DNA from: a virus
Strand: one strand, 5' to 3'
IMG/VR virus record: IMGVR_UViG_3300003876_000014
Location: 1 to 55,254 of that record
Length of the DNA: 55,254 nucleotides
In this document: in pieces, positions 31,177-42,962 of the stretch
Layout of the letters: each line of letters opens with the position of its first letter
Numbering within the stretch: the first letter of the stretch is position 1
Position numbers and translations under genes: made by a program
Notes under the pieces: model-generated
Told to the model about the DNA's origin: nothing
The model's database searches: none
Seen by the model: the letters and a program-made list of their open reading frames with translations, nothing else

Positions 31177-34100
31177 CATCAAAATAAATATCAGGTTCGA
31201 AATCAGCTTCCTTTTCATTAACATAATCATCAAAAGCTAATTTCACATTTGGTACTTTTTCAAACAATTCATCCATATCATAATGTGGTGGTATGTTATT
31301 ATCTTTTACAAAAGACTTAAAATATTCAATTTTTTTCATTCTCTCTTTAACAATCTTCTCCTTTTGCACATTAATATAATTAACATCTTCCACTCTAAGT
31401 TTTTGTAATTCAGCTTCCTTTACCTTTTCAGCTTCTTCCCATTGATGTTCTGTTGGTGAAAGTGGTACTTTAACATCATCATACTTTTTCAATATTTCAA
31501 TGAATTCACCATTATTATACCCAATTGTATATTTATCTCTAACCCAATGATTACCATTTTTATAAACATATTTATTTTCAATTTTTGGTTTAGATGCATT
31601 AACTACTAAAGGAGTAATATCACCAACCTTTATAATATTTTTAATTAAAACATAATCACCACGAATCGTTTTATCATTAATAGATTTAATCCTAGACTTA
31701 CCAGACTTTTCCATTGCATCACTAAGATAGTTCAATGCATGATTATATATTTCATAATTAACTAATCCATATTTTTCAACATCTTTTGTTTTAAAACCAT
31801 CCCATATTAATCTTGGATCATAACCAGTTTTATTCCAAAAATCAACTTCCCTATCTTCAAGATACATAGAGTCTTCATAATCATCATGATTAAAGTTTTT
31901 TAAGACTAATTGATCTGATTTAAATTCTCCCTTTTTAAGATCGATTTGCTCAACCTTTGCACCTGATGCATCTTCAATTTTTTTTCTAACTATTTTAACT
32001 AAAATTTCATCTCTTATTTCAGCATCAAATCCATCAAGTAATACTTTAACACGTTTATTAAATGCTGCAAGATATTTTTCTACATTATAATCACCTGTTG
32101 TTTCAGGATTTTCTTCTAAATCTTTTTGGTTGATTAATCTAGCTTTAATAATAGTTTCACCTGTTTTAGAATCACTTTTAACATCACCATGAGACTTACG
32201 TGTACCTGTGTTAACATAATAAACAGTAGTATCTAATTCAGGTTCAGGTGGCATATATGTTTCAACCTTCTCTATTATTGTCATTATATCATAATCACCA
32301 ATTTCTCTATTATCATCATCTTTAAATTTTTCAAAATCATTTTCAAAGATTTTTCTAGCAATATTTTCACGTTCAGCAATAATAAGTTCCATATGTACTT
32401 GTTTTGCCTTTAATTTACCATTTTTATTTGTACCACGATTAAGATAATCATCTATTGAATTTTTAATTCTAGATTTAGATGCTATTTTTTTCAATGGTAT
32501 TTGTTTATAAAAAATTGTTTCAGAATAATTATAATAATATTCTATAAAACCTTCACCATTACCATCTAAAATTAATTTCATGCTTTCATCAATAAAATCT
32601 TCAATGAATTCAGGCATTGTTTTAGACTTAATTGTATTACCAGTAAATTTAATTTTTTTCTTATTAATAAAACACCCATTAAAGTTTGGATCAGGGACTT
32701 GTTTTGGTTTACCTGTTTCTTTATCTATATCGTCTGACATTAAAGCATAATTAATTCTAGATAAATTTAAACATGAGTCAAACTCACCATCATTATCTAC
32801 GGATAAATAAGAATTTTCACGACCTAACGAGGTATAATGATCTTTTAAATAATCATTGAACTTTTCTATCAATGCTGAAACACCTGTCTTATTATTATAT
32901 TCCCACATTTCTTCAATTACACCCTCACTTACTCCCTCACTTACACCCTCATTAGTAGCTCTAATTGTTGTAGTATCTGGAATGCTAAAGTTAATACCAT
33001 CTGTTACAGCAAGTAATGGAATTAATCCAAATTTATTAAACCAATCAATTGCTTGTCTTAAATATATTCTACCTGTTGTAGTAATTCTAGCAGCACATAT
33101 ATTATCTGACCAATTAAATGCATATCCTGAACCTAATGCACCAAATAATGAATTGTTAAGAATTTTAATAGGTAACTGCTTAACAATAAATATATTTATT
33201 TGTTCTTTAGTAAATTTACCACTAAAAAATATTTGATATGATTCATTATCGATTGTTTTTAATAATTCAATTTCATTATCTGTAAGTTTATCTTCATTTC
33301 CAAGTTTCTTATATATGTTACGAGTTGTTGTCATATAAGTAAGCATCTTCTTAATAACACCAGTAATATCAAACATAGGGAATACATCATGTGTCAACTG
33401 TATCATTGGATATAGTGATGCATAATCAATTTTAAGAAGTCTCTTAGTGTAACCTTTCTTATAACATCTTGCAAGACCACCTGAAAATCTTTCAACATCA
33501 TCAGGATGTGGAATTGCTAAATCATTTTCATAACTCCATGCTGTCATGAGTAAGTTCCAAACGGCAGCATTGCCCATTGTTGCAACACGACTATATATTG
33601 TTGGAACAATTTTAGCAAGTAAGAATGATGATTGGTTGTATAAATTATCTACTTGTTCTGTTTCCCATAAATCATCCAATAAATATCTTCTTAAAATATT
33701 CTTACCGTTTTCAAATTTAAAATCTATTGTTGTTGATGAAAACTTATCAGGATTTAATTTAATAATATTAGGTCTTAACCATTCAACAAATTCAGGGTTT
33801 GGTTTTAATAATTCATTTCTAGCTACCTTATATTCATCATCACTGATTTTATCTTTATTTTCTTGTAAAAAATATAATTCACTCGATACATTATAGAATT
33901 TAGCAGGAATTTCAATATAATCATTATTTTCACTATTTAAAATAAACATAGGATTTTTATGCCAAAATCTTCCAATATCCTTACCATCATGTATATACAT
34001 TCTATTAGGTTTGGCAATATCTTCATATTTACAAATATATTTTAATTTGTTATTTTTGATTTCACTATTAACTGCTGCTGTTTTTTTTACGGCATGTATA

Positions 34101-35098
34101 ATATCTAATATTGTAAAACCATAGGCTATTGTTTGATTATATTTTTCAGTACTATTACCAAATTTAACAGTACTACCCTTTTTTCTCCATAAATCTTCTT
34201 CAGGTATTAAGGTAGTTTGTATTCTATTTTTAGGTATATCTTCTTTTTTTCTTTTTCTAGGAAACCCATTTTTAGTATATTCTGATTCAACATCCATTCC
34301 TAATAATCTAGCTCTACCCAATATAAAGTCATAATCAAACATTTCAGAGTTATAACCTGAAATAATTGCAGGATTAATATATGTAATTAAATTAAAAAAA
34401 TCTTGTATTATTATTTTTTCTGATTCATCATCATCAGGTTTTTCAACTTCTAATACATGTTCAAATCCTTTATTATCTTTCATACCAATAGCAAAGATTC
34501 TTGAATGTTCGTATCTTAAACCAGTGGTTTCAATATCAAATGTTAATTTATGTACATCATTATATTCTTCAAATCCTTTAAATAATCTAATTCCTGTTGA
34601 TATGAAAAATTGTTCATTTAGTTTTGGAAGATAAAATAAATCTCTATATTTAGAAACACTAAAACCTCTATTATCTTTAAGTATTTTACCTCTATCATCA
34701 TAAATTTTTTGATATGGATTTAAACCAGCTTCTTCAAAAAATTTAATTAACATACTAAATGATTTAGTTGTAGATGCTTTATATGGATAACCATTTTCTA
34801 ATCTTGGATGGTTACCTGTTTTCATTTTTGTAATCGTTACATCATACTTTTGTAGGATTGCCTTATATTTATCAACATTACCATCAAAGAGTTTATACCC
34901 AACCTTTTTAAGGTCTTTAAAATAGATGAATGATGTAAATGGTATTCGAACAATTTGTTTGGTTTTATTTGGTTCATGAATTACACATGTTGCATATTCA
35001 TGATTATTGTCTGTTTCAACATTAACCAAATATTTTACATCATTATTTTTCCCTTCTAAAAATTCTTGAATTTCTTTAATAGTATTTTCAGTTGTCAT
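31163..35098 (-). CDS. DNA polymerase, family B
   Basis: The 1311-residue protein has the exonuclease motifs FDIETTGL (residue about 187) and YNSEMFDYDFILGRARL, then the polymerase motif A LLKIDYASLYPMIQ (about residue 553), motif B KILNNSLFGALGSG (about 646) and motif C VTDGINF (about 698). Motif C has one Asp in place of the usual D-T-D pair: V-T-D. It is longer than T4 gp43 (898 residues), with an extra C-terminal 350 residues rich in charged helices. It is the replicative enzyme of the phage. Its start overlaps the stop of the helicase C-terminal gene as ATGA; a terminator overlaps its stop. Confidence 0.9.
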   Translation of the reverse strand: MTTENTIKEIQEFLEGKNNDVKYLVNVETDNNHEYATCVIHEPNKTKQIVRIPFTSFIYFKDLKKVGYKLFDGNVDKYKAILQKYDVTITKMKTGNHPRLENGYPYKASTTKSFSMLIKFFEEAGLNPYQKIYDDRGKILKDNRGFSVSKYRDLFYLPKLNEQFFISTGIRLFKGFEEYNDVHKLTFDIETTGLRYEHSRIFAIGMKDNKGFEHVLEVEKPDDDESEKIIIQDFFNLITYINPAIISGYNSEMFDYDFILGRARLLGMDVESEYTKNGFPRKRKKEDIPKNRIQTTLIPEEDLWRKKGSTVKFGNSTEKYNQTIAYGFTILDIIHAVKKTAAVNSEIKNNKLKYICKYEDIAKPNRMYIHDGKDIGRFWHKNPMFILNSENNDYIEIPAKFYNVSSELYFLQENKDKISDDEYKVARNELLKPNPEFVEWLRPNIIKLNPDKFSSTTIDFKFENGKNILRRYLLDDLWETEQVDNLYNQSSFLLAKIVPTIYSRVATMGNAAVWNLLMTAWSYENDLAIPHPDDVERFSGGLARCYKKGYTKRLLKIDYASLYPMIQLTHDVFPMFDITGVIKKMLTYMTTTRNIYKKLGNEDKLTDNEIELLKTIDNESYQIFFSGKFTKEQINIFIVKQLPIKILNNSLFGALGSGYAFNWSDNICAARITTTGRIYLRQAIDWFNKFGLIPLLAVTDGINFSIPDTTTIRATNEGVSEGVSEGVIEEMWEYNNKTGVSALIEKFNDYLKDHYTSLGRENSYLSVDNDGEFDSCLNLSRINYALMSDDIDKETGKPKQVPDPNFNGCFINKKKIKFTGNTIKSKTMPEFIEDFIDESMKLILDGNGEGFIEYYYNYSETIFYKQIPLKKIASKSRIKNSIDDYLNRGTNKNGKLKAKQVHMELIIAERENIARKIFENDFEKFKDDDNREIGDYDIMTIIEKVETYMPPEPELDTTVYYVNTGTRKSHGDVKSDSKTGETIIKARLINQKDLEENPETTGDYNVEKYLAAFNKRVKVLLDGFDAEIRDEILVKIVRKKIEDASGAKVEQIDLKKGEFKSDQLVLKNFNHDDYEDSMYLEDREVDFWNKTGYDPRLIWDGFKTKDVEKYGLVNYEIYNHALNYLSDAMEKSGKSRIKSINDKTIRGDYVLIKNIIKVGDITPLVVNASKPKIENKYVYKNGNHWVRDKYTIGYNNGEFIEILKKYDDVKVPLSPTEHQWEEAEKVKEAELQKLRVEDVNYINVQKEKIVKERMKKIEYFKSFVKDNNIPPHYDMDELFEKVPNVKLAFDDYVNEKEADFEPDIYFDEGDL

Positions 35099-36180
35099 TC
35101 TTTGTATTTGTTTTTAAGTTTGTTGATAACATCTCTAAGTACAGATTCTGAAATATTACTTTCATAATCTTCGTTATCCAATGCTTTCATTATTTCTTTT
35201 CGTTTAGATTCTATAACATCAAAAACATACTCATCGAGAGTATCTCTAAATATGATAGGATAGATGTTAACTGTGTTTTTCTGTGAGATTCTATGAAGCC
35301 TATCTGCAACCTGATCATATTGACCAACAGAGAATGGGAGTGTAATAATAATCATTTTTGATGATGCTGTCAAGGTTAAACCATAATTAGCTGTCTGAAT
35401 TGATGCTAAAAATATTTTAACATTACTTTCAGGGTCTTGAAATTTAGCTACTAATGCTGCTCTATCTTCTACTGTTTGATCACCAGTATGTAATGCTGAA
35501 TTTTCTGGATAAAGATCATGAAGATCATATAATGATTGTTTAAACATATCAACAACAACAACTTTTTCACCTTGTTCTAATATATTATCAATGATTTCTC
35601 TAATATAGTTAACCTTAATTGATGAAGTATATTGACGTAATCTCAACATTATAGTTAATGGATTTGATGTTGGTTTCTCATATATCTCATTAACAACATC
35701 TTCCTCAATTTGATCATATAATTTATCTTCCTTAGTATTAAGTTCTAAAATAATTTTTTGATAAATTTTATCAGGTAAATCGGTTAATACTTCTTCCTTT
35801 TTCTTTCTATATACATATGATGCAATTTTATGAAATAGTTCTTCCAATTTTTGATGTTGTACGTTTGTTGACCAACCACCAAAACCATCCATATCATAGG
35901 ACATGCCACAATAATATTCATTAAAATGTTTTTTTGTTGCAAAATCAATCGGTGATATTTGATTTAGTACCGTATATAATTCATGTGCTCTATTTGGTGC
36001 AGGAGTACCTGAAAGAAATACTTTACTAACCTCTCCATTTTTGAATACCTTTTTATTAAATATTCTTTTGAAATTTTTGAATGTATTTGCTGAAGTATTT
36101 TTTAATGCTTGACAATTACTAACTAATATACTATTAGCAAAATAATTATGATTATCCGCTATTTCTAGATCATATACCAA
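35095..36180 (-). CDS. SNF2-type helicase, C-terminal half preceded by an intein C-terminal fragment
   Basis: The first 22 residues (start codon TTG) are MVYDLEIADNHNYFANSILV and then SN, the C-terminal blocks F and G of an intein ending in Asn. The host protein resumes at Cys23 (CQALKNTS). The remaining 339 residues are the rest of the SNF2 helicase: SGTPAPNRAHELYTVLN, a second RecA-like fold with motif V region (LTLTASSKMI) and motif VI QVADRLHRISQ. Frame 3 is closed by a TGA two codons before the TTG, so translation must start near it or reach it by frameshift. In a cis-acting intein this half would continue the frame of the gene at 36165-39149. Confidence 0.75.
   Translation of the reverse strand: MVYDLEIADNHNYFANSILVSNCQALKNTSANTFKNFKRIFNKKVFKNGEVSKVFLSGTPAPNRAHELYTVLNQISPIDFATKKHFNEYYCGMSYDMDGFGGWSTNVQHQKLEELFHKIASYVYRKKKEEVLTDLPDKIYQKIILELNTKEDKLYDQIEEDVVNEIYEKPTSNPLTIMLRLRQYTSSIKVNYIREIIDNILEQGEKVVVVDMFKQSLYDLHDLYPENSALHTGDQTVEDRAALVAKFQDPESNVKIFLASIQTANYGLTLTASSKMIIITLPFSVGQYDQVADRLHRISQKNTVNIYPIIFRDTLDEYVFDVIESKRKEIMKALDNEDYESNISESVLRDVINKLKNKYKE
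36115..36180 (-). other. Intein C-terminal fragment (IntC) of the DEAD-box intein
   Basis: It contains the blocks VYDLEIADNHNYFANSILVS and the terminal N, followed by Cys as the +1 residue. The His-Asn pair HN in block F and the last Asn are the catalytic residues expected for splicing. It is shorter than usual split IntC fragments (about 35 residues), because no start is open further upstream. Confidence 0.65.
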
Positions 36181-39149
36181 ATCTCAATACTTTCCACCCA
36201 AACAATTTCAATATCTCTGTTTTCCTTTTGTCTAGAAATTTCCATTTTTTTGTTTTGTGAGATTTTCCATCTATTTCTATTGATAATTTTATTGATGTAA
36301 TTCCAATATCCACTTTGTAATGTGTTGGTGGAGATTTTATATTCGTAATACCCATTTCCTTTAATGGTTTCATTATTGGTATCACATGTTCCATTTCCAT
36401 AAATGTAATGCCTGAAATTTCTCCAAATAATATTAATTGTTGTTTTGTCAATTTTCCATTTCCACCCCTTGATAAAAACGTTCTCCCAATCATTTTTTTT
36501 CTCATTTTTTCTACTGTTATTGGGTTTGACATTGGATTGTTCAATTTCATCCTCTCCGATTGATTCTTTCTCATTTGAGGGTTCTTTTTGTAAAACTCTA
36601 TCATAGATAGACTCCTTTTTTTCGAAAGTTCCTTCATATATAATTTTTCTTTTATTTCTGGTAAAGACATTCTCCATTTTGCTGAACAACTTGTTGAACA
36701 AAATTTCTTTTTTCTTTTTTTCATTACTTGAAATTCCACGCCACATTGTTGACATATCCTTATCTCTCTCAATTGTAAATTGACTTCTTTTTTTCTTCCA
36801 GTGTATTTTGTTGAACATTTTCTTGAACAAAGTTTTTGTGTTCTTCTTTTCTGTTGAAATAGAGTGTTGCACTCTAGGCAATTTGTTTTTTTTATTAATT
36901 TTCCCTTTTCTTTCCATCTCTGCTTCATTGAACACGTTACAGTGCAACATTTCTTTTTCACATGTTCTTTTATTTGGAATTCTTTCTCGCAAAATTGGCA
37001 ATTTCGTGTTATTATTTTGCTTTGTTTTCTTTTTAATAAGTTTTTCCCCATATTTAAAATTTTTAATAGGTTTATATTTATTTTCAGTAATTGAATAAAA
37101 TTTGTGGTCTGGTGTACATTCGATTATTTCACCATTAGATAATTTTATTTTAATTACATCTTTATATCCGTTATATAAATACCTACTAATTGTTTTTGTT
37201 TCAATCTTTTTTAACGTATGATTATAGGATAAAACTTTTACATCTAATTTATCTTCAACAATTTTCCCAATTTTCATTTTCCCTTTATCAGTATCAATTA
37301 ATGTATTATATGTAAAACATTCGTCTGCAATTAATACATCTATTAAACCAATATTTAAATCTTTAAATTTTTTATCAACTTTTTTCTTATCTCTAGAATT
37401 AAAATATTCATAATTAACAATAATATATTTAGATTCTTCCATTGTATGTTTATTCTTAAATTTACTAGATTTAGGAACAATTATATGTGCTTTAGAATGT
37501 GTAAATTTTTCAACTTCATTAAAGAAATTAAATTTTAATGAGTTAGGTGTTATTACAAACACCCTTTTAAAATTATTCATCTCAACATATGCAATTGCAG
37601 AAAGTGTATTGTGAGTTAAAATACAATTATCTGTAACATATAAATGATCTTCTGCATCAACCATTATACATTGTGCTTCTTTTTTACCAACATAATTAAC
37701 TTCCTTTATTGCTCTATTAGGTAAATATTTTGTAGGTGATACATATCTTTCTATTTTACGTTTTAATTTGAAAGGTATTATATTGGGTGGTAATTTTATT
37801 GATAATCTATAATATGTTGGTTTTACTTCTATCTCTTCATACCATGAAGTTCTAGTTTTATACCTTGCAATACCACCTAATGATTGTACAATAAACTTTA
37901 CATCATCTATTAATTGTTTTGATGCTAATGTTAAATCAATATTCATACCATCAGAACTAATAGTTCCATCCGTATCCATAATTCCCCTTAAAATTTCTAA
38001 TCTATCTTCAATTGAAGAGAACATATAATCTTTAGGAATAAATTTTGTGTGTGAACCACACCCCTTTAAGTTATATTCTTTTAAATTTTGATTTATGTAA
38101 TTATTTTTACCATCTGCCGTTAGATAATAATCTTTTTTACTATTTCCAGATAAAACTAACTGATGATTTTGTGGTAATTTAGAGTCTATCTCGTTAATAA
38201 TTTCATTATCTATATTCGTAAAACTAACACCATATTTTGTTGTAATAGAGCCATCACCCAATAAACAACCTAAAATATATGGGTCTATTTTTAATTTTTT
38301 TTCTTTAAATTCAATTGGTTCAACAATGGGTATATAATGTTTATTATTACCATTATCAAACTGTAACCCCTCATTCATGATTTCTCTAAGTGTTTTTGTT
38401 TGATATGAATATTTTTTTATTCCTTTATTTGTTCTATGAATTCTAGTTGTTGAATTAACATTCCAAAGATGTTCATCACACGATCTTGCTGTTGTATTGT
38501 CATTAAATTTAATTTCATATATATCTTTTTTACCTTGAGGATAAACTCCAATAACTTTTGTTGATTTACCATTACTTCCAATCACATAATCACCAACTTT
38601 AACATCGCCCATTCTAATCCAACCATTAGGTGTAAGTAGTTTAGAATCTAAGTCTTGGCTTTTTCCTAAACCCATTTCTAGTGCTAATAAAACACTTTTA
38701 ACTTCATCAATAAACATAGTACCAGCTATTTGATGTGGATATAATATTGTACCTTCTTTAAGATTTTTATGTGTTAGTTCTCTATATTTTTCAAAATCCT
38801 TATCTAATTCATCTTTTAATCTAATCCAAAGATTTTTCTTTTGTACAAGTAATTTTAATTCTAAGATTTTTCTCGCATCATCTTCATCAATTTTTTTGAT
38901 TTGCTTAATAAATGCGTGTTTTTCTTCAACACCACCAAAATCAAATACGATTTTATTAGATTTACGATACCTCTTCATTAGTTCATAAAGACCTCTGGTA
39001 TTCATAATCCAACAATTTTCAACAGAATCCCATTTACGCCAATCTACGTTGATTTCCTTTATTCTAGAAACAACTTCTTTATGATAATCGAAAAATACTT
39101 TATATTTTGATTGTCGTAATATTCTATGACAGGATACTTTAAAGGGCAT
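36165..39149 (-). CDS. SNF2-type (SMARCAL1/HARP-like) helicase, N-terminal half with a complete intein and an intein N-terminal fragment
   Basis: Residues 1-75 resemble a HARP-type domain (YKVFFDYHKEVVSRIKEI, then WRKWDSVENCWIM). Helicase motif I is MGLGK plus T after removal of intein 1 (residues 164-514, between K163 and T515). The motif II segment ends as VLIADE, where intein 2 begins with Cys611. Residues 611-700 are its N-terminal fragment. From residue 701 to 994 the frame runs through the nested endonuclease gene and has no homology; it is best regarded as a non-coding or readthrough tail. After both inteins are removed, the helicase would be about 598 residues. It probably acts in replication fork or recombination work near the polymerase. 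Confidence 0.75.
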   Translation of the reverse strand: MPFKVSCHRILRQSKYKVFFDYHKEVVSRIKEINVDWRKWDSVENCWIMNTRGLYELMKRYRKSNKIVFDFGGVEEKHAFIKQIKKIDEDDARKILELKLLVQKKNLWIRLKDELDKDFEKYRELTHKNLKEGTILYPHQIAGTMFIDEVKSVLLALEMGLGKSQDLDSKLLTPNGWIRMGDVKVGDYVIGSNGKSTKVIGVYPQGKKDIYEIKFNDNTTARSCDEHLWNVNSTTRIHRTNKGIKKYSYQTKTLREIMNEGLQFDNGNNKHYIPIVEPIEFKEKKLKIDPYILGCLLGDGSITTKYGVSFTNIDNEIINEIDSKLPQNHQLVLSGNSKKDYYLTADGKNNYINQNLKEYNLKGCGSHTKFIPKDYMFSSIEDRLEILRGIMDTDGTISSDGMNIDLTLASKQLIDDVKFIVQSLGGIARYKTRTSWYEEIEVKPTYYRLSIKLPPNIIPFKLKRKIERYVSPTKYLPNRAIKEVNYVGKKEAQCIMVDAEDHLYVTDNCILTHNTLSAIAYVEMNNFKRVFVITPNSLKFNFFNEVEKFTHSKAHIIVPKSSKFKNKHTMEESKYIIVNYEYFNSRDKKKVDKKFKDLNIGLIDVLIADECFTYNTLIDTDKGKMKIGKIVEDKLDVKVLSYNHTLKKIETKTISRYLYNGYKDVIKIKLSNGEIIECTPDHKFYSITENKYKPIKNFKYGEKLIKKKTKQNNNTKLPILRERIPNKRTCEKEMLHCNVFNEAEMERKGKINKKNKLPRVQHSISTEKKNTKTLFKKMFNKIHWKKKRSQFTIERDKDMSTMWRGISSNEKKKKEILFNKLFSKMENVFTRNKRKIIYEGTFEKKESIYDRVLQKEPSNEKESIGEDEIEQSNVKPNNSRKNEKKNDWENVFIKGWKWKIDKTTINIIWRNFRHYIYGNGTCDTNNETIKGNGYYEYKISTNTLQSGYWNYINKIINRNRWKISQNKKMEISRQKENRDIEIVWVESIEIWYMI
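36170..37051 (-). CDS. EDxHD/Vsr-like homing endonuclease nested within the second intein
   Basis: The 293-residue protein has three treble-clef-like zinc modules (C-x2-C ... C-x3-C: CQFCEKEF and CCTVTCS, CLECNTLF and LCSRKCS, CQQCGVEF and FCSTSCS). A NUMOD-like linker follows (FLSRGGNGKLTKQQL), then the nuclease domain with KVDIGI, LSIEIDGKSH, a following D and GWKVLRF, the E-x-D-G-x-x-H-type signature. The start ATG lies in the intein's block B region in the +1 frame. The gene occupies the place of a homing domain, as in the fractured genes with split inteins first described in phage metagenomes. One-base changes at 37043-37046 (GGGG) and near the end could put it in frame. Confidence 0.8.
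   Translation of the reverse strand: MGKNLLKRKQSKIITRNCQFCEKEFQIKEHVKKKCCTVTCSMKQRWKEKGKLIKKTNCLECNTLFQQKRRTQKLCSRKCSTKYTGRKKEVNLQLREIRICQQCGVEFQVMKKRKKKFCSTSCSAKWRMSLPEIKEKLYMKELSKKRSLSMIEFYKKNPQMRKNQSERMKLNNPMSNPITVEKMRKKMIGRTFLSRGGNGKLTKQQLILFGEISGITFMEMEHVIPIMKPLKEMGITNIKSPPTHYKVDIGITSIKLSIEIDGKSHKTKKWKFLDKRKTEILKLFGWKVLRFGI
37050..37319 (-). other. Intein N-terminal fragment (IntN) of the DEAD-box intein
   Basis: It begins with Cys1 (CFTYNTLIDTDKGKMKIGKI), contains block B-like ECTPDHKFYS with the T-x-x-H, and covers about 90 residues, the normal length of an intein N-terminal part. The extein before it is VLIADE, so insertion is between the E of helicase motif II and the following Cys. 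Confidence 0.7.
37608..38660 (-). other. Complete intein with LAGLIDADG endonuclease, in the Walker A motif of the helicase
   Basis: The 351-residue insert starts at Ser1 (SQDLDSKLLTPNGW, block A) and ends LTHN before Thr+1. It contains two LAGLIDADG motifs (ILGCLLGDGSI and LRGIMDTDGTI) and the block F-like DAEDHLYVTDNCIL. It interrupts MGLGK and TLSAIAYVEM of the helicase. The catalytic first Ser, the penultimate His and last Asn are present, so it should splice and cut. Confidence 0.8.
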
Positions 39150-39182
39150 ATATTATTTTTAAATTTGTTTAATTATTAGTAG

Positions 39183-39857
39183 TTAAAAATCACGCTCAAT
39201 TTCCATTCTTTTGATACAATCTAGTGGTGTTTCGTTATCTAGTAATTTATAACTACACCCAATCGTTCCACCTTTCCAACTCCATTTCTTTTTCCCAACT
39301 TCTTTTGAAAAATGTATATCAATAGTTTTATTTACTAACGCAAATACTTTAGTCCACTTTAACCATTTAGGTCGCCATTCTCTTTCTTCCACATATATTT
39401 TTGTGGGGATGATTTCGCCATCATATTTATCTTTGTAATCATATTCCCATACTGCTTGTTTAATCTTCCAATTATCTTCATAAAAATTTTTATGATTTCC
39501 ATTTGTTTCGTGTTCCCAACTATTATTTTTTAATAAAATTGATGTTCTTATCCAATCTTTTGTAATAAATGGAATATCCCAAGTCCACCATTTACTACCA
39601 CCATCCATATTACCCTTACCCCCTTTATAAACCCAAAATGTATTATTGTGAATTGCAATTCCCCATTTAGGACAATCACATTCATTCGTCCATTTGTTTC
39701 TAAAAGGGAGTATAATTGTTAAATTAAAAAATATAAAATCTAAATTAATTCTTGGTCTATTATCAAAATATCCACATATTTCAAAACTAATATCAAAAAC
39801 TTTTGACCAATAAAATATTAACCATTTACTTTCATAAATCCATTTCTCTTTTTTCAT
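39183..39857 (-). CDS. Hypothetical Trp-rich phage protein
   Basis: This 224-residue protein is rich in Trp and Lys and has no recognised catalytic motif. Notable phrases are the internal CDCPKWGIAIHNNTFWVYKGG and the C-terminus KGGTIGCSYKLLDNETPLDC. Similar sequences occur in other phage genomes as conserved unknowns. It lies just upstream of the helicase gene on the same strand. Function unknown. Confidence 0.5.
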   Translation of the reverse strand: MKKEKWIYESKWLIFYWSKVFDISFEICGYFDNRPRINLDFIFFNLTIILPFRNKWTNECDCPKWGIAIHNNTFWVYKGGKGNMDGGSKWWTWDIPFITKDWIRTSILLKNNSWEHETNGNHKNFYEDNWKIKQAVWEYDYKDKYDGEIIPTKIYVEEREWRPKWLKWTKVFALVNKTIDIHFSKEVGKKKWSWKGGTIGCSYKLLDNETPLDCIKRMEIERDF

Positions 39858-39965
39858 ATATTTATTTCTTAGTTCACAAAGATAATAATATTTCCATCAA
39901 AATGCAACCATATTAAAAACATATTCAAATTTACCACAATATTCATAAAGAAAATTAATTTTAAT

Positions 39966-39974
39966 GTATTTATA
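39966..39974 (+). promoter_or_regulatory. GTATTTATA element on the plus strand, before the only plus-strand gene
   Basis: The plus strand reads GTATTTATA, three bases before ATG at 39978. The orientation switches with the gene, which supports a strand-specific signal. The very short spacer would leave almost no leader. Confidence 0.6.
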
Positions 39975-39977
39975 TAC

Positions 39978-40832
39978 ATGGAATCTGGAATATATAAAAT
40001 ATTAAATAATATAAACGGTAAATTTTATATTGGTAGTACTAAAAATTTTAATAAAAGATGGGTATCACATAAATACCTATTGAGGTTAAATAAACATGAG
40101 AATAAACATTTACAATATGCATGGAATAAGTATGGTGAAGAACATTTTCAGTTTATTAAATTTCAAGATGTTAAAATAGAAAATCTAATAATTTGGGAAC
40201 AACATTATATTAATACGTTAGACGTATATAATAGAAATATTGGTTATAATTTATCACCAACAGCAAATAGTACATTGGGGTTTAAATTTAGTGAAGAATC
40301 TAAAATGAAAATGAGTCTAGCTAAAAAGGGTAAGCAATCATCAAGAAAAAATTATAAGCATTCAGAAGAAACTAAGAAAAAAATAGGTGAAAATAATAAA
40401 ATTAGTCAATTGGGTAGAATACATAGTGAAGGTACAAAAATAAAAATGAGTAAATGGCATACCAATAAAATTGTAAGTGATGAAACTAAGAAAAAAATAA
40501 GTAAATATCGAACAGGTAAATTATTATGTGAAGAAACTAAAATAAAAATTTCACAAAAGATGATGGGTAATAAATATGCTTTAGGGCATAAACATACTGA
40601 AGAAACAAAAAAGAAAATATCTGAAATACTAAAAGGTCATAATGATAATAATAAACCTAGAAATATAGGAGAATCTAATGGTATGTCAAAAACTAACGAA
40701 TTAGAAGTTTTATCAATTAGAGATGATTACAATAATAAAAATTTATCAATTAAAGAATTAATGGTAAAATATAATAAAAACTATCAGTTTATATATAAAA
40801 TAATTAAACGATTAAGATGGAATTGGTTATAA
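39978..40832 (+). CDS. GIY-YIG homing endonuclease with NUMOD3-type repeats
   Basis: The 284-residue protein starts with the GIY-YIG core (GIYKILNNINGKFYIGST, R at position 27, WEQHYIN with the Glu). Residues about 96-230 hold five or more NUMOD3-like repeats (KHSEETKKKIGENN, HSEGTKIKMS, VSDETKKKIS, CEETKIKIS, HTEETKKKISEILK) that bind DNA. A C-terminal helix-turn-helix follows (LSIKELMVKYNKNYQFIYKI). It is the only plus-strand gene of the window and its stop shares the palindrome TTATAA with the stop of the convergent gene at 40827. It is a free-standing mobile element. Confidence 0.85.
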   Translation: MESGIYKILNNINGKFYIGSTKNFNKRWVSHKYLLRLNKHENKHLQYAWNKYGEEHFQFIKFQDVKIENLIIWEQHYINTLDVYNRNIGYNLSPTANSTLGFKFSEESKMKMSLAKKGKQSSRKNYKHSEETKKKIGENNKISQLGRIHSEGTKIKMSKWHTNKIVSDETKKKISKYRTGKLLCEETKIKISQKMMGNKYALGHKHTEETKKKISEILKGHNDNNKPRNIGESNGMSKTNELEVLSIRDDYNNKNLSIKELMVKYNKNYQFIYKIIKRLRWNWL

Positions 40833-41216
40833 TACCGTTGTTTTGGTAATACTATCTCCGATAATAATCTGTATGGTATCATCAAGAGGTAATTTAATTT
40901 TTCCACATTCAGTTCCTAAAAAGTCGACCACAAATTCACCACTGTACAATCCATCTTTTTTAGTATCTTTTAATTTTAATCTTATTGCTAAAGTATAAAT
41001 TGATTCATCTAATTTTTCATAAATATTTTCAACAATAATTAATTTAGCTTCTCTATTGGCTACTCTATAATTACCAGTATTTGTATCTATCATTGAAAAT
41101 GTAACAGCTACATTCTTCATCATTTCATTGGAGATGTCTAATTTTTCCATCATCCATTGTTCTAATGGAAATTTAATTTCTGGAAGGGTACTATTTTTTT
41201 TTATAAAGATTGTCAT
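40827..41216 (-). CDS. Hypothetical structural protein of the tail-fibre region
   Basis: This 129-residue protein is beta-rich with an Ig-like look (VAVTFSMIDTNTGNYRVANR, YTLAIRLKLKDTKKDGLYSG). The start overlaps the stop of the upstream gene as TAATG; the end shares TTATAA with the convergent endonuclease gene. It may be a small tail or neck protein. No known family. Confidence 0.5.
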   Translation of the reverse strand: MTIFIKKNSTLPEIKFPLEQWMMEKLDISNEMMKNVAVTFSMIDTNTGNYRVANREAKLIIVENIYEKLDESIYTLAIRLKLKDTKKDGLYSGEFVVDFLGTECGKIKLPLDDTIQIIIGDSITKTTVL

Positions 41217-41875
41217 TATACATATATGTTATTTTCTTCGTAATTAATATTTACTTCATTATATAAATACTCTCTAACTTTTGTTCCTTGTGCGTTAATT
41301 GGTGAATCTAACCAAGTATAATTACTATTGGTCATTATTGAATTTTTTAATGGCTCTAAAATACCTTCAATATATAAACCAATATTTGAAGATATTTCTC
41401 CTAAGAATTGAAATCCACTTGCCTCTGCATTATCTCTTGTCATACCAACTGCTGCTTGTAATAAATATAACGTAGCAATTTTCATATTAGAAATAATACT
41501 TCTTCTTCTTTTTTCACCTGCCGCAATTGATTCTTCAGGTGTATAGTATTTTGTTACGTGATTTATAGCACCTATTGTGTCTCCACTCATTACAGTACCA
41601 CCACTATAATTAATATCACCATCACAATACCAATTAATAATCATCTCACGTCTATTAAGCATACGATTAACACGATAATAAGTTCTTGTTTCTTTAACTA
41701 TTAATTCAGAATATATAGTACCATCATATTCACCGTAATATTCAATTGTTTTTAATTCACCCTTTTCCTTATTTTTCTTTCTATGTAATCCTAATATTGT
41801 ATAATCAATATCAAATGGTGGATTATTAAAATCTATTGGATTACTGTTTTTTGTATAGTTGTATATTTTAAACAT
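41216..41875 (-). CDS. Hypothetical structural protein
   Basis: This 219-residue protein has no recognised motif. It contains a phrase WYCDGDINYSGGTVMSGD and a helical middle (AGEKRRRSIISNMKIATLYL). It stands between a fibre-like gene upstream (4-base gap) and the small beta-rich gene downstream (TAATG overlap). A tail or baseplate accessory function is inferred from the neighbours. Confidence 0.5.
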   Translation of the reverse strand: MFKIYNYTKNSNPIDFNNPPFDIDYTILGLHRKKNKEKGELKTIEYYGEYDGTIYSELIVKETRTYYRVNRMLNRREMIINWYCDGDINYSGGTVMSGDTIGAINHVTKYYTPEESIAAGEKRRRSIISNMKIATLYLLQAAVGMTRDNAEASGFQFLGEISSNIGLYIEGILEPLKNSIMTNSNYTWLDSPINAQGTKVREYLYNEVNINYEENNIYV

Positions 41876-41879
41876 AATG

Positions 41880-42962
41880 TTAATATCTAAATCCTGTTAT
41901 ATAATATGCTCCAGAACCTGCTTGTGGAAGTAGAAATGGTGTTAATATAATGTCATCAGCAGGATTATTTGAAATCCATGTGTATAATACTGTTTCATTA
42001 TCCCAGTCATTTTCATCGACTTCACATATGTGACATTCAGCACCATCACCACCAGAATTTTCAAATTTCAATTTATAAAATTTATTTACATCAAAACTTA
42101 TTGTTTTACCTATATTCTGATTCCAATTAGTAACATCACCACCACCATAAAATGTATTAACACTATTATTATTATTATACATACCAATTTCTTGTTTATA
42201 ATATGCGGAACTAATTGTTGAAATATCTAAAGATTTTGATGCTATACCTAGCATAAATAATACATCTGATGTTCTAGTAAAAATAATTTCAAATGTTATA
42301 TTTTCAGTTCTATTCCAAAAATATGAACCAAACTTAACACCTCTATTCCACGATGATGTAGAAGATGAAAATCTAAGTCCATTAGTTGTATCTTGTTCAA
42401 CATTTATTCCTGAAGTCATTTCTAATCCTAGATTAACTATTGGTTCACTTCTTAAATCAACAGTAATTTTAGTTTTTATTAAAATTTTATTGAATCCAGA
42501 TTCTTTTGATTGTAAATCTGCATTATAAACAATTATATTAAATAATCCTTCATTTGTACCTACCGTAATCTCTACCCTTAATTGTTTTGGTGAATCAAAA
42601 TAAACAGTATTTACGAAATTACCAACACCAGATATTTCAACGGTTGAAAATGGTGAAAAATTAATTCCCATTATTGATATTATTTTCGTAGCAGTTGGTT
42701 CAAAATCACTATTTACAATATTTTCAATATGTGGTTCTAAATCTAAACCACTTGCAGTTTCTTCATAGAATGTTCTAATTGTTTCTTCATCATTTATAAC
42801 CACATTCATACCATCCCATTTATAGAACATTAAAGGTTGTGAAGTGGGAAAATCATAATCTGTTTCTATTTCAATTTCATTTGCTAATAAATCAAGAAAT
42901 TTACCACCACTAATTTCAATGATTGTATTGTTTTTGTTAATATCTATTTTTATCCAATTCAT
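41880..42962 (-). CDS. Fibre-like protein with a fibre N-terminal module, IPT/TIG-like domain and C-terminal lectin-like domain
   Basis: The 360-residue protein starts with a module also seen in the two fibre genes upstream (compare DFPTSQPLMFYKWDG with DIPEIQPLYLYKES). Residues about 85-150 follow the IPT/TIG pattern (KIISIMGINFSPFSTVEISG). The C-terminal 200 residues have concanavalin-like strands (GLRFSSSTSSWNRGVKFGSY ... KLKFENSGGDGAECHICEVD). Such parts bind sugars. It is translationally coupled (TAATG) to the fibre gene upstream. Likely a receptor-binding accessory; inferred. Confidence 0.55.
   Translation of the reverse strand: MNWIKIDINKNNTIIEISGGKFLDLLANEIEIETDYDFPTSQPLMFYKWDGMNVVINDEETIRTFYEETASGLDLEPHIENIVNSDFEPTATKIISIMGINFSPFSTVEISGVGNFVNTVYFDSPKQLRVEITVGTNEGLFNIIVYNADLQSKESGFNKILIKTKITVDLRSEPIVNLGLEMTSGINVEQDTTNGLRFSSSTSSWNRGVKFGSYFWNRTENITFEIIFTRTSDVLFMLGIASKSLDISTISSAYYKQEIGMYNNNNSVNTFYGGGDVTNWNQNIGKTISFDVNKFYKLKFENSGGDGAECHICEVDENDWDNETVLYTWISNNPADDIILTPFLLPQAGSGAYYITGFRY

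What the first reader, a model, noticed from the sequence alone, without database searches (positions are those of the whole stretch)
36115..37319. A helicase intein that is split around a nested EDxHD homing endonuclease
The motif II of an SNF2-type helicase is interrupted by an intein whose N-terminal 90 residues (37050-37319) end exactly where a 293-residue endonuclease gene begins in another frame. Its C-terminal blocks (36115-36180) open the downstream helicase half in a third frame. This matches the layout of fractured genes with split inteins and Vsr-like endonucleases first described from phage metagenomes. In such genes the two halves are made separately and joined by trans-splicing, which would rebuild the helicase. 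The visible IntC is only 22 residues, shorter than usual. This is the window's best candidate for an unusual molecular system.
Basis: partly seen in the sequence, partly recalled or inferred. Interest (0 to 1): 0.9.

Follow-up and report, generated by a model that had tools for sequence, protein, structure and literature searches.

The report
Intein overprinted with homing endonuclease
A phage helicase carries a self-splicing insert whose middle also encodes, in a second reading frame, a complete DNA-cutting enzyme; the 'split' look in this window comes from 52 missing bases, but the two-proteins-in-one-DNA design is real, recurs in many phages, and may be one way split inteins arise.

Summary
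The intein in helicase motif II and the EDxHD endonuclease in another frame are real; the split is not. The window record lacks 52 nt at 36178/36179, one of ten gaps against a contig that otherwise matches without substitution. With them, helicase and intein are one 1,368-aa frame, and a complete 312-aa endonuclease gene lies inside the intein in its +1 frame. This 'overprinted' layout is a family trait: of 91 endonuclease clusters 89 could be tested; in 85 the intein frame has no stop across the endonuclease core, where about 799 were expected; the third frame is not depleted. Three clusters are truly fractured, show the expected stops and form one clade. AlphaFold folds the intein ends into a Hint domain and leaves the shared middle largely unfolded; the same DNA in +1 folds as a nuclease. 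The offset is always +1, the one in which the genetic code never forces an intein-frame stop. HNH endonucleases show the same layout in two terminase inteins. Splicing, expression and cleavage are inferred. A possibly overlapping preprint could not be read.

The parts
36165..39149 (-). Intein-frame ORF as printed in the window: helicase N-part, intein 1, and intein 2 read through the whole endonuclease region up to the artefactual gap (994 aa)
   Evidence: Pfam Intein_splicing and LAGLIDADG_3
36115..37319 (-). Intein 2 (419 aa when the missing 52 nt are present), inserted after DE of motif II, followed by Cys
   Evidence: Intein_splicing 7.9e-11 over residues 11-419 of the intact copy
37020..37319 (-). 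N-terminal part of the splicing (Hint) domain, intein residues 1-100
   Evidence: AlphaFold block means 93-98
36170..37051 (-). EDxHD homing endonuclease gene in the +1 frame of the intein, cut short in the window (293 codons); 312 aa in the intact copy L002:5001-5939
   Evidence: DUF559 1.3e-14 in the intact copy
36230..36277 (-). Endonuclease residues E259, D261, H265, D274 (numbering of the intact copy): D261, H265, D274 invariant in 79 of 79 aligned rows, E259 in at least 90%
36179..36212 (-). Stretch serving both proteins: intein beta strand (VESIEI) and nuclease motif (GWKVLRF) in two frames
   Evidence: strand at intein residues 370-381
36178..36179 (.). Position where 52 nt present in the 325,854-bp contig are missing from the window record; this makes the apparent split
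36115..36180 (-). C-terminal intein blocks (VYDLEIADNHNYFANSILVSN), out of frame only because of the gap
35095..36114 (-). Helicase C-terminal part after the intein (begins Cys-Gln-Ala)
   Evidence: SNF2-rel_dom and Helicase_C

Best explanation
A mobile, cis-splicing intein in which the spacer between the two halves of the splicing domain is the same DNA as a complete EDxHD homing endonuclease gene read in the +1 frame. Shown here: a continuous helicase-intein frame in an intact record; an intact endonuclease frame inside it; intein frames kept free of stops through the wobble bases of the endonuclease; a predicted Hint domain with a largely unfolded spacer, and a predicted folded nuclease from the same DNA; an occupied and an empty copy of the site in near-identical phages. 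Inferred: the precursor splices in cis; the endonuclease is made separately from an internal start; it cuts the empty motif II site and so spreads the element; where the intein frame is no longer kept open the gene becomes a fractured gene with a split intein. The split seen in this window is a record artefact.
For: Intact record: 52 nt restored, one 1,368-aa ORF and a 312-aa ORF inside it; ten gaps and no substitution between window ~300 and 55214, eight of ten spoil a long ORF. Family: 89 of 91 clusters tested, HEN in the +1 frame of an intein in all 89; 85 of 89 have 0 intein-frame stops, 799 expected in sum, third frame 1,459 seen vs 1,377 expected. 0 of 1,112 NNY codons end in T before AA/AG/GA, 67% elsewhere. 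Fractured controls: 58 stops seen, 60.7 expected. Intein residues C1, T69, H72, N419 invariant in 63 of 63 rows. Structures. Empty site. Isolates: 5 of 5 examined. Bacterial contigs: 5 of 7. Shine-Dalgarno-like match at 43 of 78 starts vs 25% in controls.
Against: No expression, splicing or cleavage data. The window's own lineage has no Shine-Dalgarno match at its start, and 7 of 85 loci have no ATG candidate. Foldseek finds no nuclease match at E <= 0.001 (best 0.011). No reads were available to show directly that the 52-nt gap is an artefact. Some intein profile hits are weak (for example L090 and L134).
Confidence: 0.85

Rival explanations
1. One reading: a fractured helicase gene with a naturally split intein (about 90-aa IntN, 22-aa IntC) that splices in trans.
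For: As printed, the three parts are in three frames. Related loci L105, L114 and L124 really are fractured.
Against: The identical contig has 52 more nt and one frame. The window has nine other gaps of the same kind. The gap also removes the end of the endonuclease, present in the other 8 rows, and a strand of the intein, present in the rows.
Confidence: 0.04
2. Same architecture, but the endonuclease is made by +1 ribosomal frameshifting from the intein frame, as a fusion to the intein N-part, rather than from an internal start.
For: The offset is +1 in all 89 tested clusters, as +1 frameshifting would need; 7 of 85 loci have no ATG candidate and the window's lineage has no Shine-Dalgarno match.
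Against: Shine-Dalgarno-like matches are enriched at the starts (43 of 78 vs 25%). The code itself explains why +1 is the permissive offset. I did not search for conserved slippery sites.
Confidence: 0.1
3. The intein frame is open by chance, because of composition and lysine-rich sequence; the arrangement means nothing.
For: AT-rich, lysine-rich genes can leave other frames open; for the single GC-rich Clown case the depletion is weak (0 vs 2.9, P 0.03).
Against: Permutation keeps protein and codon usage and predicts about 799 stops where 0 are seen; the third frame is not depleted; fractured relatives show the expected number. Holds for loci from 26% to 68% GC.
Confidence: 0.01

Closest known systems
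Fractured genes with split inteins and EDxHD/Vsr-like endonucleases (Dassa et al. 2009, NAR 37:2560; content recalled, paper not held; citation seen)
   Same: Intein halves around an EDxHD endonuclease gene, in phage replication enzymes; three loci found here (L105, L114, L124) have that layout
   Different: Here the intein is not split: its frame runs unbroken through the endonuclease gene, which is read in +1
[quoted passage not shown] abstract, passages and two sections read)
   Same: A homing endonuclease gene hidden out of frame inside a host gene whose frame stays open
   Different: That paper finds no splicing domain around it and proposes that the insert stays in the protein; here a Hint domain surrounds it, and the nuclease family is EDxHD
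[quoted passage not shown] 2015 [author name recalled], PMC4422536; passages seen)
   Same: An out-of-frame endonuclease said to be intein-encoded: the nearest precedent in print that I found
   Different: HNH family, terminase host, one sentence without analysis of frames or splicing residues; not checked here (record not found)
Ordinary bifunctional inteins with an in-frame LAGLIDADG domain (such as intein 1 of this same gene)
   Same: Cis intein plus homing endonuclease in one element
   Different: Ordinary: one polypeptide. Here two polypeptides from two frames of one DNA
EDxHD endonuclease I-Bth0305I (PDB 3r3p; review PMC3943268, passages)
   Same: Best structural match and a profile match at 0.0033
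   Different: PDB calls it a mobile intron protein; not overlapped with an intein

Membership tests
Intein (cis-splicing) | Catalytic residues: Cys1, block B TxxH, C-terminal Asn, Cys at +1 | tested here: met
   C1, T69, H72, N419 invariant in 63 of 63 rows; Cys +1 in L002 and in all 14 rows; Ser instead of the usual His before the Asn in this lineage
Intein (cis-splicing) | Hint fold | tested here: met
   Residues 1-100 and the C-terminal strands predicted with high confidence; matches to DnaE, RecA, DnaB, NrdJ-1 and gp41-1 inteins
Intein (cis-splicing) | Both halves in one frame with the exteins | tested here: met
   L002 1,368-aa ORF; not met in the window record as printed, which lacks 52 nt
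Intein (cis-splicing) | Splicing activity | not testable with these tools
   needs expression
EDxHD homing endonuclease | Conserved E, D, H, D of the Vsr-like active site | tested here: met
   D261, H265, D274 in 79 of 79 rows, E259 in at least 90%; the mapping to the family name is from recall
EDxHD homing endonuclease | Fold of I-Bth0305I / Vsr | tested here: met
   3r3p first, 3hrl second, 1vsr fourth by Foldseek, E 0.011-0.061, none at 0.001; profile to 3hrl 3.1e-12 and 3r3p 0.0033
EDxHD homing endonuclease | Cleavage of the empty site and homing | not testable with these tools
   Occupied/empty pair CP-T1 / vB_VchM-138 is consistent
Fractured gene with split intein | Intein halves on separate ORFs, intein frame interrupted | tested here: not met
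   One ORF in L002; met in L105, L114, L124
ShiLan-type hidden endonuclease insert | Endonuclease out of frame inside an open host frame | tested here: met
ShiLan-type hidden endonuclease insert | No self-splicing domain around it | tested here: not met
   Intein_splicing 7.9e-11 and Hint fold
Overlapping (overprinted) gene pair | Both frames under constraint | tested here: met
   Endonuclease conserved; intein frame kept free of stops. The spacer's own sequence shows no special conservation

The most novel reading that the evidence does not exclude
Overprinted inteins are a distinct, widespread class of mobile element: a homing endonuclease gene sits in an intein out of frame and is tolerated because +1 is the one offset in which the genetic code lets every outer-frame stop be removed silently. 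They are an immediate source of fractured genes: once the outer frame is lost, the intein must splice in trans. HNH endonucleases reached the same solution independently in terminase inteins.
Probability: 0.6. Interest if true: 0.88.

Novelty: new variant of a known kind. Interest (0 to 1): 0.8.

Why it matters
It shows how an endonuclease gene can live inside an intein without sharing its polypeptide, with two proteins of unrelated fold held in one stretch of DNA in phages from 26% to 68% GC. It offers a concrete path between cis inteins and split inteins, which are widely used tools. It gives a reason from the genetic code itself for the constant +1 offset. And it means that endonucleases in sequenced phages such as Vibrio CP-T1 and Corynebacterium phi673 are hidden under 'helicase'. 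The main claims can be tested with one plasmid reporter.

Tried and rejected
Split intein at this locus: rejected. Chance open frame: rejected by codon permutation, third frame and fractured controls. Conservation of the spacer for its own sequence: not supported; among seven loci the excess in the intein frame (0.369 vs 0.314 permuted) is like that in the third frame (0.393 vs 0.334), and an extein control gave 0.326 vs 0.295. 'Stop in HEN core' printed for L062, L075 and L146: profile hits begin a few residues before the ORF opens, so this is not decay. Group I intron at L108: no Rfam match (with the permissive threshold). The window's 52-nt junction in other viral contigs: 0 matches. Recoded TAG as the reason for the single stop of L145: not supported, its other genes are open in the standard code. 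My first Shine-Dalgarno control compared single values with means of draws and was unfair; one search replaces it. Literature: ten completed searches listed no paper that I recognised as describing an EDxHD gene overprinted in an intein; only four papers were opened (PMC11855218, PMC3943268, PMC3229294, PMC4422536). The preprint 10.1101/2025.01.02.630785 on actinobacteriophage inteins with 'non-canonical architecture' (title seen in a reference list) was not held and may describe related cases. Dassa 2009 and Gorbalenya 1998 were not held.

Full report
What is in the window. On the minus strand lies an SNF2-type helicase gene with two inserts. Intein 1 (37608-38660) sits in the Walker A motif and carries an in-frame LAGLIDADG domain (coordinates). 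Intein 2 begins after DE of motif II at 37319 and ends at 36115. A 293-codon ORF (36170-37051) with a DUF559 / Vsr-like nuclease domain lies in the +1 frame of intein 2. As printed, the helicase C-half is in a third frame.

The split is an artefact. A stretch of a 325,854-bp contig (locus L002) is identical to window 31231-42051 except for 52 extra nt between 36178 and 36179. With them the helicase and both inteins are one 1,368-aa ORF, and the endonuclease is a 312-aa ORF lying wholly inside intein 2. Between about window 300 and 55214 there is no substitution against this contig, but the window lacks ten segments of 16-74 nt; by inspection of the printed joins they share at most 2 nt. The first ~280 nt align less cleanly, at 83-89%. 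Eight of the ten gaps interrupt or shorten the long ORF that the contig has there; the two of 24 and 69 nt do not. The nine rows all have the endonuclease end that the gap removes, and the 14 rows have the intein strand. I had no reads, so the artefact is an inference, though a strong one.

The architecture is a family trait. Scans with the endonuclease (the last capped at 80 of 95 loci), one with the helicase C-half and five annotated phage records gave 147 loci, of which 140 records hold the endonuclease. They fall into 91 clusters at 90% identity. Two clusters could not be tested: L078 has no N-part (its match starts at the locus end) and L108 has no intein. In the other 89 the endonuclease is in the +1 frame of an intein (a few intein hits, such as L090 and L134, are weak). 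In 85 of 89 the intein frame has no stop across the endonuclease core. Permuting synonymous codons within each gene predicts 799 stops for these 85. The third frame has 1,459 against 1,377 expected, so it is not depleted. The exceptions are L105 (15 seen, 17.6 expected), L114 (29, 28.8), L124 (14, 14.3) and L145 (1, 15.0). The clusters share ancestry, so they are not independent draws; but end branches are long (median 0.52 changes per column) and GC runs from 26% to 68%.

Why +1. A stop in the intein frame needs a wobble T in the endonuclease followed by AA, AG or GA. NNT and NNC are always synonymous, so every such stop can be removed silently. Enumerating the code, no amino-acid pair forces an intein stop in this offset; in +2 five pairs do (Met before Ile, Met, Thr, Asn or Lys), and 84 of 85 endonuclease cores contain at least one, 3.4 on average. 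In the 85 clusters 0 of 1,112 NNY codons before AA/AG/GA end in T, against 67% elsewhere; in the three fractured clusters it is 76% in both settings. The zero follows from the absence of stops; the 67% shows its size. That the offset is constant for this reason is my inference.

Structure. For the 419-aa intein (63 rows) AlphaFold gives residues 1-100 block means of 93-98, 371-380 at 96 and the last 19 at 97-98. The blocks between 101 and 370 lie at 37-61 except one at 74, and 381-400 at 58-68. Foldseek matches DnaE, RecA, DnaB, NrdJ-1 and gp41-1 inteins. The endonuclease from the same DNA folds at mean pLDDT 87, with a weaker first 50 residues (79 rows). Its best match is I-Bth0305I (3r3p), then 3hrl, with Vsr fourth, at modest E-values of 0.011 to 0.061. 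The sequence profile reaches 3hrl at 3.1e-12 and 3r3p at 0.0033. One stretch serves both proteins: the intein strand VESIEI and the nuclease motif GWKVLRF share nucleotides, and in the 11 loci L002-L012 the codons of the intein's YDLE-like block hold the endonuclease's TAG.

Expression. In the 16 loci measured the chosen start lies 241-283 nt into the intein. At the best in-frame ATG, 43 of 78 loci have a Shine-Dalgarno-like match (duplex of -5 kcal/mol or lower) against 25% for matched control ATGs (binomial p about 3e-8, taking loci as independent, which they are not). It is 34% vs 19% in 32 AT-rich loci and 70% vs 30% in 46 others. The window's lineage has none, and 7 further loci have no ATG candidate.

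Isolates and mobility. 40 phage records match the endonuclease. The five examined all have the layout, and each annotates only a helicase over it. In bacterial genome contigs 5 of 7 loci have it. Phage CP-T1 has the intein between GATGAG and TGC. vB_VchM-138, 96-97% identical around it, reads GATGAA GCT without interruption and is not among the 40. In ten loci chosen for a scan of the host protein five are SNF2-type helicases and five DnaX-like clamp loaders. The site follows DE directly in 77 of 85 clusters.

Link to split inteins. L105, L114 and L124 are fractured: the intein N-part ends in a stop at the start of the endonuclease, and the C-part reopens within its end. On a quick tree of 84 rows they form one clade (SH-aLRT 100), beside the overprinted L107 (87), among 78 overprinted rows; the root is not inferred. 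L145 has a single TAG where 15 stops are expected: a fracture at its start, or a sequencing error. L108 and L148 have the endonuclease free-standing just upstream of an intein-free helicase. A path from free-standing gene to overprinted intein to fractured gene fits these states but is not proven.

Second origin. The terminase genes of Gordonia phage Clown and Synechococcus phage S-EIVl hold an intein with an HNH endonuclease in the +1 frame. For Clown the stop depletion is weak (0 vs 2.9, P 0.03); S-EIVl was judged from its translation and its match to Clown alone. By contrast, the helicases of phages Amona and ES have their nested gene at +2 and are fractured; it is annotated LAGLIDADG in Amona.

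Prior work. Out-of-frame HNH genes without splicing domains are known from the ShiLan domain (PMC11855218; abstract, passages and two sections read). One sentence on brucellaphages mentions an intein-encoded HNH gene out of frame in the terminase (PMC4422536, passages). Fractured genes with EDxHD endonucleases are from Dassa 2009 (recalled). A preprint on actinobacteriophage inteins was not available. I therefore call this a new variant of a known kind.

Noticed in passing
window 4179, 11021, 23627, 24737, 30910, 43807, 51627, 55030, 55105: Nine further segments (16-74 nt) present in the contig of L002 are missing here; seven of the nine interrupt or shorten a long ORF, so other 'split' or frameshifted genes of this window may be artefacts.
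   Followed up: yes
window 37608-38660: A second intein in the same helicase, in the Walker A motif (GLGK|S...N|T), with an ordinary in-frame LAGLIDADG domain and Ser as first residue.
   Followed up: partly
L148:3468-4079: Same endonuclease family free-standing just upstream of an intein-free helicase (motif II DESHH) in a contig filed as Spirochaetaceae.
   Followed up: partly
L108:4406-4420: Free-standing endonuclease beside a helicase that has one extra base exactly at DE|xHH of motif II, the expected target site; it could be a repair scar or a sequencing error.
   Followed up: partly
L145:3611: Single TAG in the intein frame where 15 stops are expected; a downstream ATG could start the C-part. 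Possibly a fracture at its start.
   Followed up: partly
L161:1817-4576 and L164:1441-3981: Terminase inteins of Gordonia phage Clown and Synechococcus phage S-EIVl with an HNH endonuclease in the +1 frame, annotated only as terminase.
   Followed up: partly
L159:2075-5185 and L162:2057-5191: Pectobacterium phage Amona and Escherichia phage ES helicases look like fractured genes with a split intein and a nested gene (LAGLIDADG by annotation in Amona); in ES the N-part is annotated 'minor tail protein'.
   Followed up: partly
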